A stretch of 64,000 nt of DNA from the NCBI GenBank assembly GCA_016841945.1, contig JAENYC010000009.1, positions 1 through 64,000 of the forward strand, given 5' to 3'. This DNA comes from Haloplasma contractile. Lineage in GTDB: Bacteria > Bacillota_I > Bacilli_A > Haloplasmatales > Haloplasmataceae. The notes beneath the pieces are model-generated. The model was not told where the DNA came from and ran no database searches. It was given only the letters and a program-made list of their open reading frames with translations. Shown piece by piece: positions 52,792 to 57,057 of this stretch. The stretch's first letter is position 1. Every line of letters starts with the position of its first letter. Both the position numbers and the translations under genes were made by a program.

Positions 52792-53172
52792 TTACCTAAT
52801 TTCTATGGTTAGTTTATCTGAATCCACATCATATGTGATAATGCCAAATTCATCTATGTCTTCATGATTAATACGAAAACTAATCGTCCATTTGTTTATA
52901 GATGAATCATAATAATAAGTCAAATAGATAAAATCTTCATCATAATAAATGAGTTCTGTTTCATAATTTAACGCTTGATTTAAAATAATTTTTTCTTTAA
53001 TATGACTTTTAGCCCGTTCTTCTAAAATAAAAATATGATAATAATTATTTTTATCATTATAGTAGTTATTCGTGTTTAAACTACACAAAACGACAAAAAT
53101 GAACATGTTTAATACAAAGATGAACAGAAATAAAGCATAAGGAAGAAAGAAACCATGTTTATTATGACACAT
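52792..53172 (-). CDS. comGG: ComGG-like minor pseudopilin
   Basis: 126 residues. One N-terminal hydrophobic helix (about 8-30) preceded by KHG and no obvious E5, then a polar Tyr/Asp-rich domain. The assignment rests mainly on position as the last pseudopilin gene of the comG operon, overlapping comGF; sequence identity in this family is low. Confidence 0.65.
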   Translation of the reverse strand: MCHNKHGFFLPYALFLFIFVLNMFIFVVLCSLNTNNYYNDKNNYYHIFILEERAKSHIKEKIILNQALNYETELIYYDEDFIYLTYYYDSSINKWTISFRINHEDIDEFGIITYDVDSDKLTIEIR

Positions 53173-53593
53173 AAAAGATAACCTGTGTATAATATATTTG
53201 ATTCATTTGATTGATGATAGTAATTTCAATGTAGTAATTATTTAATATAAAGTTTATTTCTTTGATTCCATCTATTATCGCATAACTTGAGTTATTAATT
53301 TTCATCACGATGGCATTATTGTAAACATAGTATTGATAATGTTGTTGTCTATAATCATATTTTAAATAATTTGAACCTATTTCATATAGTGTTGCTTCTT
53401 TTAAATGATTTTCAATTCTTAATACGAGTGTTTCATAAGTTAAGGTATTATTATTTTTGATAATTTTACTATGAATATTTATATTATAAAATATTTGTTG
53501 ACATAAAACAAATAAATTTAAAAGGATAAATAAACAAAAAACAAGTTCTAAGTAACTAAAGCCAGACTTTTTCACAAACAGTTTTTCTTTCAT
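53162..53593 (-). CDS. comGF: ComGF-like minor pseudopilin
   Basis: 143 residues. A type IV prepilin leader: KKSG/FSYLELVFCLFIL, with cleavage after Gly and Glu at +5, then a hydrophobic helix and a beta-rich head. Overlaps comGE and comGG. Subunit of the DNA-uptake pseudopilus. Confidence 0.75.
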   Translation of the reverse strand: MKEKLFVKKSGFSYLELVFCLFILLNLFVLCQQIFYNINIHSKIIKNNNTLTYETLVLRIENHLKEATLYEIGSNYLKYDYRQQHYQYYVYNNAIVMKINNSSYAIIDGIKEINFILNNYYIEITIINQMNQIYYTQVIFYVS

Positions 53594-53855
53594 TTTTTAT
53601 ATCCCACCAATAGATACATAAAGTATTATTTTCTAAAATAATTTCATAATCTTCACTTGTTGTGAATGGTTTACCACTTTCTACTAATACTACATTAAGT
53701 GTTAATGTTTGTTTCATCTTATATGATAATTTATGATTTTCTAGTTGCATTATTAACTGATTCAAGGGCACTAAAAAGCTATAAATTAACGTGGTTAAAA
53801 TAACAAAACACAGCATTAATTCATAAAAAATATATCCTTTTTTACTATGTAACAT
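53556..53855 (-). CDS. comGE: ComGE-like minor pseudopilin
   Basis: 99 residues. Leader SKKG/YIFYELMLCFVIL with Glu at +5, then a short domain ending KVWL. I prefer ATG 53855, which gives a seven-residue leader; a GTG at 53876 is also possible. Overlaps comGD by 11 bases and comGF by 38. Confidence 0.7.
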   Translation of the reverse strand: MLHSKKGYIFYELMLCFVILTTLIYSFLVPLNQLIMQLENHKLSYKMKQTLTLNVVLVESGKPFTTSEDYEIILENNTLCIYWWDIKNERKTVCEKVWL

Positions 53856-54252
53856 AGACTCGACCACTCTTTTCACTAATACTTATCAAATAAGTATGAT
53901 TTTCACAACTCAGTTGAAATGAAACAGGGCTAATCACTTGACCATGACTGATTTCTATTGTAGAAGAACTGATTATAAATGCTTTGTCATAATTTCTTCT
54001 TATTACAACCGTCATATTCCCATCATTAAACACATAGGTATTTAAGTTAGGAATAATATAAATTTTAATGGTTGTAAAATGTGTCGTTGAATAAGTTAAA
54101 CCATATAAAATATCTGATTCTAAGGTTTTAATAAAATAATTGACTTTTACAGTACAGCTTGATTGTTTACTAAAGGGAATCAATAATAATATCGAAGTGA
54201 TGATACTTATCATAAATATTAATTCTATTAGATAACTACCCTTTTTATTCAT
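53845..54252 (-). CDS. comGD: ComGD-like minor pseudopilin
   Basis: 135 residues. Leader MNKKG/SYLIELIFMI with Glu at +5 and a typical N-terminal helix. The head ends SGRVYVT. Overlaps comGC by four bases (TGA/ATG). Confidence 0.78.
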   Translation of the reverse strand: MNKKGSYLIELIFMISIITSILLLIPFSKQSSCTVKVNYFIKTLESDILYGLTYSTTHFTTIKIYIIPNLNTYVFNDGNMTVVIRRNYDKAFIISSSTIEISHGQVISPVSFQLSCENHTYLISISEKSGRVYVT

Positions 54253-54563
54253 TGTGAAGTTGTTGTGGTTTCAGTCGTAATAGATGCGACTCCATCAATA
54301 TAACTTATTGAAGTTCCATCAAAACAAGTTGTTGATTTAATATAGTTTTCATCAACTAGAGTTTGTAAATCACTTGGAAGCATATTATGGTCAATGACAT
54401 AAGCTTGAATTTGTGTATTCACCAATTCAACATATGCTTCACATGATTTATGATCTAAACTCTCTTTTGTATTTGAAATATTAGGAATTATTAAAAACAT
54501 TAAACCCGATATAACGATTAAAACAATCATTAACTCTGTTAATGTAAATCCTTTTTGATTCAT
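54249..54563 (-). CDS. comGC: Major competence pseudopilin ComGC
   Basis: 104 residues. A textbook prepilin: MNQKG/FTLTELMIVLIVIS, Phe at +1 and Glu at +5. The head has two cysteines (SCEAYV, TTCFDG). It builds the pseudopilus that pulls transforming DNA to the membrane. AAAAGGAGC precedes the start; a 15-base gap separates it from comGB. Confidence 0.93.
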   Translation of the reverse strand: MNQKGFTLTELMIVLIVISGLMFLIIPNISNTKESLDHKSCEAYVELVNTQIQAYVIDHNMLPSDLQTLVDENYIKSTTCFDGTSISYIDGVASITTETTTTSQ

Positions 54564-54580: not shown

Positions 54581-55510
54581 TTATATGTTTTCAGATATTT
54601 GAAGCATAGGTATCATCACAATATAATAAATTAAAAAGATATTGATAGATAGTAAAGAAAATAAACCAAATTGAATATAGTAAGATAATTTTGTCAGATG
54701 GTCAATCAAAATTTCTTCATAAATCGTGATATAATCTTTTAACGCATTAACCAAGTCATTTGTTTTCATTCCTAACTTAAAATACTGCAAGAAAGATTCT
54801 GAATAAGATGAAGATAATCCTAATTTAGAATCATTTAATAAAGCACTTTCTAAATGCTTAAAATTATATATCTTTGGATTTAAACTTGATTGTAGAATAA
54901 TAAATGCTTCTTCTAAACTGTTTCCACAACTTAACAAAATCACTAATTGCTTAGCGAGTATAATTGTACGATATAATTTGATTGAAGGAACTAGGTTGGC
55001 TAGATTTTTTTTATGGTATAAAATGAAAAAAATCATAAATAAGATACAAGCAATCCATTTTAATAAATGAAAACTAATGATAATTAAAACTTTATTTTGA
55101 ATAATAGAAAACTCAATTAGTAAATTTTCAATGATTGGATAAAGATTAATTCTAATCATTTCAAAACAAAATAACGCAAAACCAAATAAAATAACAGGAT
55201 AAAGTAAAACTTTATTCATTTGTTTCTTTATCTTAAGGTAAAAATCAAATTGTTCTTCTAATAGACCAAAGGCTACTTGTATTTTATTACTCTTTTCTCC
55301 TATCTGAATAGTATCATGCACAAATGGTTTGAACTTTAAAATCTTAAATGTATGTGATAATAAGTTGCCTTCATCTAGTTTTTGTTTCATTCTAGAAATG
55401 ATATTACCATGTACCTGTTTCATCATGTCTATAGCTTCTAATAACGAGTACCCTTTTATTAATAGTCGGTTTAATATTTTAACTATCATATATTGTCTTT
55501 CACTATTCAT
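54581..55510 (-). CDS. comGB: Competence inner-membrane platform protein ComGB
   Basis: 309 residues. A T2SF/PilC-like platform: cytoplasmic KGYSLLEAIDMM and SFKP-type FKILKFKPF segments, then membrane helices at about 100-118, 150-170 and 285-305. A second cytoplasmic repeat KLYRTIILAKQLVILLSCG contains the GNSLEEAF motif. Connects the ComGA ATPase to the pseudopilus. Overlaps comGA by four bases. Confidence 0.88.
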   Translation of the reverse strand: MNSERQYMIVKILNRLLIKGYSLLEAIDMMKQVHGNIISRMKQKLDEGNLLSHTFKILKFKPFVHDTIQIGEKSNKIQVAFGLLEEQFDFYLKIKKQMNKVLLYPVILFGFALFCFEMIRINLYPIIENLLIEFSIIQNKVLIIISFHLLKWIACILFMIFFILYHKKNLANLVPSIKLYRTIILAKQLVILLSCGNSLEEAFIILQSSLNPKIYNFKHLESALLNDSKLGLSSSYSESFLQYFKLGMKTNDLVNALKDYITIYEEILIDHLTKLSYYIQFGLFSLLSINIFLIYYIVMIPMLQISENI

Positions 55511-56475
55511 GACTTTATCACCTTTAGATTAAGCTCATCGATATAATCAATAATTTTCTTATAAGAAAAAGTACCTCCCATTTTTATATACTGAAGTGCC
55601 TCAAGAATCTTATTTTGACTTAAATATTCAAAAATGATTTTTTTACTATTTTGATACACTGTTAACCGTTGATTAGTAACCAATAAAAATGTTTGTTCAA
55701 GGTCAATAATAGACAATCCAAACTCTATAAAGCGATATAGGGCTTTTAAAGCATTACTAGCATGCATGGTGCTAATTACTAAATGTCCAGTTAAAGCAGC
55801 CCGAATGGCACTTTTTGCGGTATATTCATCCCTAATTTCACCGATAAATATAATATCAGGGTCATGTCGTAAAATTTCTTTAACCCCACTATCATAATTC
55901 ACACCAGCATTTTCATTCACTTGTAGTTGTACAAAACCTTGTTCATAATGTTCAACCGGGTCTTCTATTGTTACAATGGATAACCCTTGTTTTTTAAAGC
56001 GATTTAATAAACTGTATGTCAAAGTCGTTTTACCAGAGCAAGTTGGACCCGTAATTAAAACTAATCCATTAGATTGTTGTAAACAATTAATAAATATTTC
56101 ACTTTTTTCTTTAAATAATAATAAATGTTCTACCTCCTCTTCAAACTGATGATGATTAATTCTTAAAACGATACTTTCACTATCAAAAGAGGGCAAAGTA
56201 GATACTCTAATACGCATCAACTGATTATTGAACATCATATTCAAAGCACTAGATTGAGGACTTTTAGATACGTTTAAGTTCATATGACTTTTAAATTTAA
56301 TATAAACAATTAACCGTTGATAATATTCTTTTTTAATTTCTTTACATGGAATTAATTGATCATCCACTCGTAATTTAACTGAACAATATTTTTGATCATT
56401 TAAAAAATGGATATCAGTCGCATTTTTCTTTTTCGCTAATAAAATAATATCTTGTAAGAAACGATTAAAATCAAT
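55507..56475 (-). CDS. comGA: Competence pilus assembly ATPase ComGA, apparent AUU start
   Basis: 322 residues if read from ATT at 56475. GspE/PilB-family ATPase: N-terminal module ATDIHFLNDQ...VKLRVDDQL, Walker A GPTCSGKTTL, Asp box TIEDPVEHYEQG, Walker B DIIFIGEIRD and His box LVISTMHASNA. The only conventional start in frame is the GTG at 56367, which would remove 36 residues of conserved N-terminus. In-frame TAG at 56491-56493 closes the frame upstream. ATT at 56475 lies exactly seven bases after GAGAGGGGG, so an AUU start is the simplest reading. First gene of the comG operon. Confidence 0.8.
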   Translation of the reverse strand: MDFNRFLQDIILLAKKKNATDIHFLNDQKYCSVKLRVDDQLIPCKEIKKEYYQRLIVYIKFKSHMNLNVSKSPQSSALNMMFNNQLMRIRVSTLPSFDSESIVLRINHHQFEEEVEHLLLFKEKSEIFINCLQQSNGLVLITGPTCSGKTTLTYSLLNRFKKQGLSIVTIEDPVEHYEQGFVQLQVNENAGVNYDSGVKEILRHDPDIIFIGEIRDEYTAKSAIRAALTGHLVISTMHASNALKALYRFIEFGLSIIDLEQTFLLVTNQRLTVYQNSKKIIFEYLSQNKILEALQYIKMGGTFSYKKIIDYIDELNLKVIKS

Positions 56476-57057
56476 TCTACATCCCCCTCTCTAGTCCTCG
56501 TGTTTATATACGCTGTTTTCATAATTATTTATTTAAAACTCTAAATATTATTCTGTTATATTTAAACACCAAACAAAAAAACGGTTACTAATTAAACAAT
56601 CAATTAGTAACCTCATAAATTCTTTTATAATCTATCTCTATTAATTAAGGTTTTAACTCTTATGGAATTTATTGTTATCTCCTTCAATTATTACATCTTG
56701 GAATTGATTTATAAAAAATATAATTATTATATGATAGGATAATTTCAACCTATTTTTATTATTCTGTATAAAATCAATAATTACATTATAATTAACTTCT
56801 TTCCATACAATAAACTTTTTTGAAAATTCAGGCAATACTACTAGTGTTTTTTATAATATATATTTCTCTATATAAAAATTATAAATGCTTGAATATTTTT
56901 TACTAGTTATACTATGTTTTTATTAAATGAAATACAAGTTACCCGATAACGTTTGACACCTTAAATAGAAAGAGAAGTTAGAAATGTTTATATATCTTGT
57001 TGAAATGAATCAAACACATTGTATCAGAAAAATTTAAAAAGAATAATTTAAAACCTT
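56476..57057. other. Region upstream of comGA
   Basis: Holds the comGA ribosome site, a minus-strand terminator at 56583-56612 and a poorly supported 60-codon minus-strand reading frame (56653-56835, TTG start, no ribosome site). I could not recognise a ComK-type box or a clear promoter. Confidence 0.45.
56583..56612 (-). terminator. Terminator upstream of the comG operon
   Basis: GGTTACTAATT / AATTAGTAACC perfect 11-bp stem, 8-base loop, followed by seven T residues on the minus strand. It would end transcripts coming from the metallo-hydrolase side. Confidence 0.85.

What the first reader, a model, noticed from the sequence alone, without database searches (positions are those of the whole stretch)
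55507..56490. comGA appears to start at AUU
The conserved N-terminal module of the ATPase is encoded between an in-frame TAG at 56491-56493 and the first conventional start (GTG 56367). ATT at 56475 lies seven bases after GAGAGGGGG. AUU starts are rare, best known from infC, where they give IF3-sensitive low initiation. A competence operon limited this way would be a new control point.
Basis: partly seen in the sequence, partly recalled or inferred. Interest (0 to 1): 0.65.

Follow-up and report, generated by a model that had tools for sequence, protein, structure and literature searches.

The report
Competence ATPase gene starting at AUU
In a small bacterial family (Haloplasmataceae), the first gene of the DNA-uptake pilus operon is apparently read from a weak AUU/AUC/AUA start codon instead of AUG, the class otherwise best known from infC, so DNA uptake may be throttled at translation initiation.

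Summary
ComGA's conserved N-terminus opens at ATT 56475, with no ATG/GTG/TTG between the in-frame TAG (56491-56493) and GTG 56367. It is not a sequencing error. All 8 held genomes of the family carry comGA, and 7 lack a canonical start at this place: AUU in four (including the window), AUC in two, AUA in one; one has GUG. The same-genus genome reads TAA-AAA-AUU-GAU, which pins the start. Outside the family, 32 of 33 comGA genes have ATG/GTG/TTG there. Among 283 G000/G001 ortholog pairs, comGA and infC are the only intact genes with conserved coding clearly upstream of the first canonical start; infC begins AUC/AUU/AUA in all 8 genomes. The comGA Shine-Dalgarno is stronger than 95-99% of genes at the AUH sites, matching the 'extended SD plus non-canonical start' layout described in Staphylococcus. 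Best reading: a conserved AUH start that keeps ComGA (and, by ATGA overlap in 5 of 8 genomes, ComGB) synthesis low and open to IF3 discrimination. The start codon is well supported by comparison; reduced initiation and IF3 control are inferred. The kind is known (infC, sigR, ccpN, cvfC1); its use on a competence operon appears new in the papers searched.

The parts
56473..56475 (-). ATT (AUU) initiation codon of comGA
   Evidence: Only near-cognate start at SD distance between in-frame TAG and GTG 56367; AUU/AUC/AUA at the same place in 6 relatives
55507..56475 (-). comGA, competence type IV pilus ATPase, 322 aa from AUU
   Evidence: NF041000 300.4 bits, Pfam T2SSE
56483..56491 (-). extended Shine-Dalgarno GAGAGGGGG, 7 nt before AUU
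   Evidence: Duplex energy stronger than 98% of genes; anti-SD GGATCACCTCCTTTCT read in same-genus 16S
56491..56493 (-). in-frame TAG closing the frame upstream
56504..56513 (-). conserved promoter-like box GCGTATATAA
   Evidence: Aligned in family comGA leaders, degenerate in G006; similar boxes before comGA in other families and in comEA; promoter role inferred
56494..56499 (-). conserved GAGGAC, probable start of the short 5' UTR
   Evidence: transcription start inferred
56477..56482 (-). out-of-frame ATG-TAG start-stop pair between SD and AUU
   Evidence: not conserved in relatives
56365..56367 (-). first canonical in-frame start (GTG, residue 37); rejected as the start
   Evidence: first canonical codon at residues 35-57 in six genomes compared
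56583..56612 (-). terminator-like hairpin of the upstream gene, insulating comGA
54581..55510 (-). comGB; its ATG overlaps the comGA stop (ATGA 55507-55510), so translation is probably coupled
54249..54563 (-). comGC major pilin
   Evidence: NF040999 91.6 bits
52792..54252 (-). four further small ORFs in comGD-comGG position
   Evidence: ORFs 53845-54252, 53556-53876, 53162-53593, 52792-53172; named by position only

Best explanation
comGA is initiated by fMet-tRNA at AUU 56475. An unusually long SD:anti-SD duplex places the ribosome on a codon that IF3 discriminates against, so the operon's first protein (and, through the ATGA overlap, ComGB) is made at a fraction of the AUG rate and in inverse relation to IF3 activity. 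The site is an ancestral trait of this family (AUU in 4 genomes, AUC in 2, AUA in 1, GUG in 1). Shown by comparison: the start site, the codon class, its conservation, SD strength, the comGB overlap, and infC with the same class. Inferred: reduced initiation, IF3 sensitivity, and the purpose (keeping the pilus motor scarce and limiting leaky DNA uptake outside induced competence).
For: ATT with SD and no other start; AUH at the same place in 6 relatives from separate assemblies, including the isolate Inordinaticella fortuita 4B; G001 TAA-AAA-ATT pins it; N-terminus under purifying selection; 32 of 33 outside genes canonical; only comGA and infC stand out as intact genes in 283 pairs; SD stronger than 95-99% of genes at AUH sites; infC AUH in all 8; experimental precedents for AUU/AUA with extended SD giving about 10% of AUG (PMC13009471) and IF3 repression of sigR GTC (PMC5472188).
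Against: No expression, ribosome-profiling or peptide data. G005 uses GUG, so the weak codon is not indispensable. The strong SD could restore near-normal expression. Absence of AUG among 7 AT-rich sequences does not by itself prove selection against AUG.
Confidence: 0.6

Rival explanations
1. AUU is the true start but has no regulatory role: a drifted weak codon tolerated because the extended SD compensates and ComGA is needed only in small amounts.
For: Very strong SD; GUG in G005; third base varies.
Against: Switches from AUG to AUU are extremely rare (1 of 61,358 ancestral AUG starts, PMC5622118), yet the AUH class persists across most of the family's genera; only infC behaves alike in the sampled genes.
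Confidence: 0.3
2. Sequencing or assembly error: the real start is ATG, or TTG/ATG brought into frame by a missed base in a G or T run.
For: In the window alone one extra G (56483-56487) would join ATG 56522, and one extra T would join TTG 56474, to the frame.
Against: Relatives from separate assemblies show AUH at the same place with a different surrounding sequence; upstream stops lie 6 codons (G000) and 2 codons (G001) away.
Confidence: 0.02
3. A canonical start is used upstream or out of frame (ATG-TAG at 56482, TTG within ATTGAT) with re-initiation or programmed frameshifting into comGA.
For: ATG-TAG follows the SD directly in G000; G001 has ATG-GGA-GGG-GGA-TAA; ATTGAT contains TTG in G000, G001 and G004.
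Against: None of these elements is conserved: G002, G007 and G006 have no TTG at that place, G007 and G003 have no upstream ATG mini-ORF, and no slippery site is shared.
Confidence: 0.04
4. Translation starts at the first canonical codon (GTG, residue 37) and the upstream similarity is not coding.
For: Gene callers limited to ATG/GTG/TTG would choose it.
Against: N-terminal codons 2-36 are under purifying selection; outside ComGA proteins carry the same module from canonical starts; the first canonical codon falls at unrelated places in relatives (residues 35, 35, 37, 43, 55, 57).
Confidence: 0.02

Closest known systems
infC (IF3) AUU/AUC/AUA start
   Same: AUH start after a good SD; present in all 8 genomes studied here
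   Different: infC autoregulates its own product; comGA does not encode IF3, so any effect would be one-way
Streptomyces sigR GTC start (PMC5472188)
   Same: conserved non-canonical start on the first gene of a regulated operon, repressed by IF3
   Different: GTC rather than AUH; a sigma factor in an oxidative stress switch
Staphylococcus/Bacillus ccpN (AUA) and Staphylococcus cvfC1 (AUU) (PMC13009471)
   Same: conserved AUH start with extended SD; cvfC1 is also the first gene of its operon
   Different: different genes; tested by Ribo-Ret and luciferase (about 10% of AUG), which comGA is not
ComGA of other lineages of the class
   Same: homologous ATPase, similar GTATATA-type box in several
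   Different: ATG/GTG/TTG starts in 32 of 33 sampled

Membership tests
ComGA (competence type IV pilus ATPase) | NCBIfam NF041000 score above cut-off and comG operon context | tested here: met
   300.4 bits vs 300; comGB (NF041012, below cut-off) and comGC (NF040999 91.6 vs 75) follow
Conserved non-canonical (IF3-discriminated) start codons | No ATG/GTG/TTG available; AUH at SD distance | tested here: met
Conserved non-canonical (IF3-discriminated) start codons | Codon class conserved in relatives | tested here: met
   7 of 8 family genomes AUH; one GUG
Conserved non-canonical (IF3-discriminated) start codons | Extended SD pairing | tested here: met
   -13.8 to -18.8 kcal/mol at AUH sites, stronger than 95-99% of genes
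Conserved non-canonical (IF3-discriminated) start codons | Reduced initiation relative to AUG | not testable with these tools
   needs reporters
Conserved non-canonical (IF3-discriminated) start codons | Response to IF3 level or IF3 fidelity mutants | not testable with these tools
   IF3 gene present in all 8 genomes; response untested

The most novel reading that the evidence does not exclude
Natural competence in Haloplasmataceae is gated by IF3: the AUH start makes pilus-motor synthesis, and through coupling ComGB, depend inversely on IF3 activity, tying DNA uptake to the state of the translation machinery. This would be the first competence operon known to be controlled by start-codon fidelity.
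Probability: 0.35. Interest if true: 0.75.

Novelty: new member of a known kind. Interest (0 to 1): 0.52.

Why it matters
Few non-canonical bacterial starts outside infC are well characterised, and gene callers limited to ATG/GTG/TTG truncate or extend such proteins. A family-wide case on a competence operon widens the set of likely IF3-sensitive genes, offers a translational control point for DNA uptake, and gives a comparative recipe (conserved N-terminus plus extended SD plus AUH) for finding more.

Tried and rejected
Sequencing error (rejected by relatives); alternative-frame TTG or ATG with frameshift or re-initiation (not conserved); start at GTG 56367 (N-terminus conserved); RNA hairpin hiding the comGA start (single-sequence folds show no shared structure; no Rfam family). 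Search for other genes sharing the promoter box GTATATAWN{2,6}GRGGRC: besides comGA the hits lie inside or next to unrelated genes, as chance would give. Protein scan of genome contigs with a single sequence found nothing; with the alignment it named the family. The 16S was not found in G000, so the anti-SD was read from same-genus G001 and from G006. In that scan other large N-terminal overhangs looked like broken or fragmentary genes, a transposase, or an overlap with an upstream gene, all without SD plus AUH (read by eye).

Full report
Observation. On the minus strand the frame is TAG (56493-56491) AGA GGG GGA TGT AGA ATT(56475) GAT TTT AAT CGT ..., and the first ATG/GTG/TTG is GTG 56367, residue 37. 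The product matches ComGA (NF041000, 300.4 bits) and is followed by comGB and comGC.

Conservation of the start. The family held here has 8 genomes and all carry comGA. The named records among them are Inordinaticella fortuita strain 4B and Haloplasmataceae or Bacilli MAGs, so the family is Haloplasmataceae; the window's own genus is probably Haloplasma (inference). At the aligned N-terminus the sequences read: G000 GAGAGGGGGATGTAGA-ATT; G001 GGGAGGGGGATAAAAA-ATT; G003 AAAGGAGGAATCT-ATT; G004 AAAGGAGGGATAATA-ATT; G002 AAAGGAGGGAAATT-ATC; G007 GAGAGGAGGGAAACT-ATC; G006 AAAGGGGGACGCTACC-ATA; G005 AAAGGAGAAAAAT-GTG. In G001 the frame is TAA-AAA-ATT, leaving no room for another start. G003 and G002 have an in-frame TTG or ATG 24-27 nt upstream, but these overlap the promoter-like box or the expected transcript start, have no SD evident by eye, and are not shared by the others.

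Specificity. Of 33 comGA genes outside the family drawn from the class, 32 have ATG/GTG/TTG at the expected distance from the DIH motif; the exception (G017, L121) is ambiguous. Four more outside genes seen (L020, L024, L027, L028) start with ATG. Within the genome, 283 reciprocal ortholog pairs between 1.04 Mb of G000 and 1.28 Mb of G001 were tested for conserved coding upstream of the first canonical start. As intact genes, only comGA (37 and 43 residues) and infC (39 residues in G000) stand out; the other overhangs were judged by eye to be broken genes, repeats or overlaps with a neighbouring gene (a smaller run is). infC starts AUC, AUU or AUA in all 8 genomes.

The N-terminus is coding. 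Between AUU and residue 36, dN/dS is 0.36 (G000/G001) and 0.13 (G002/G007); these are short stretches and the values are rough. The module aligns with outside ComGA proteins from their canonical starts.

SD strength. The anti-SD GGATCACCTCCTTTCT was read in G001 and G006 16S genes (none was found in the G000 assembly). Computed duplex energies at comGA are -15.5 (G000), -13.8 (G001), -17.4, -17.5, -16.2, -14.7 and -18.8 for the AUH sites, and -13.4 for the GUG site, against a median of -10.25 for 172 G000 genes; the AUH sites rank above 95-99%. Only about 3% of internal AUH codons have an upstream energy of -9 or lower.

Mechanism. Inferred from precedents: IF3 destabilises 30S complexes on codons other than AUG/GUG/UUG, and a long SD compensates in part. 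In Staphylococcus, AUU (cvfC1) and AUA (ccpN) starts with extended SD gave about 10% of the AUG output in poor medium (PMC13009471). In Streptomyces, IF3 represses the sigR GTC start (PMC5472188). Among 61,358 reconstructed AUG starts only one switched to AUU (PMC5622118), so keeping AUH across a family is unusual. The comGB ATG overlaps the comGA stop as ATGA in G000, G001, G002, G007 and G004, so a limit on comGA translation should pass to comGB. A terminator-like hairpin (56583-56612) and a conserved GCGTATATAA-GAGGAC leader suggest a dedicated promoter and a 5' UTR of roughly 30 nt; this is inferred. No shared RNA structure covers the start.

What is not shown. No expression data exist here. 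The GUG in G005, and the composition argument (AT-rich third positions seldom give G), mean selection against AUG is suggested, not proven. IF3 control of competence is therefore a hypothesis at about one in three.

Novelty. The kind is known (infC, sigR, ccpN, cvfC1). Three full-text searches pairing comGA, competence or natural transformation with non-canonical or ATT starts gave no report of such a start on a competence gene (the two hits were judged by title and abstract only); the library is open-access papers only.

Noticed in passing
L100 2020-2094 (G000:C33), L101, L098, L103, L099 (comEA leaders): comEA starts at ATG, but a conserved long inverted repeat (AAAATCCCTC..GTGTATATA..GAGGGATTTTT) encloses a promoter-like box in its loop and pairs with the SD; 5 of 18 pairs show compensatory change. 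Read-through transcripts would hide the RBS, while transcripts starting inside would not.
   Followed up: partly
L121 / L013 (G017 comGA): An outside-family comGA with no ATG/GTG/TTG at the expected place (CAGGAGTCGGGCCCCTCG-ATT-CAT; its genus mate G066 has TTG-TCT-ATT-CAT): possible second AUU start or a damaged start.
   Followed up: partly
L061-L066, G000:C65 (ORF C65|-|87354, minus strand): ORF of about 160 aa whose N-terminal part lies in another frame than the rest (the ortholog in G001 is intact), probably a frameshift in the assembly or a decayed gene.
   Followed up: no
window 56477-56482: Out-of-frame ATG-TAG start-stop pair wedged between the comGA SD and its AUU; not conserved, but could compete for ribosomes in this species.
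   Followed up: partly
L147, L148, L140, L149, L012: GCGTATATA-like box directly upstream of the comGA SD in several other families, suggesting a widely shared competence promoter element.
   Followed up: partly
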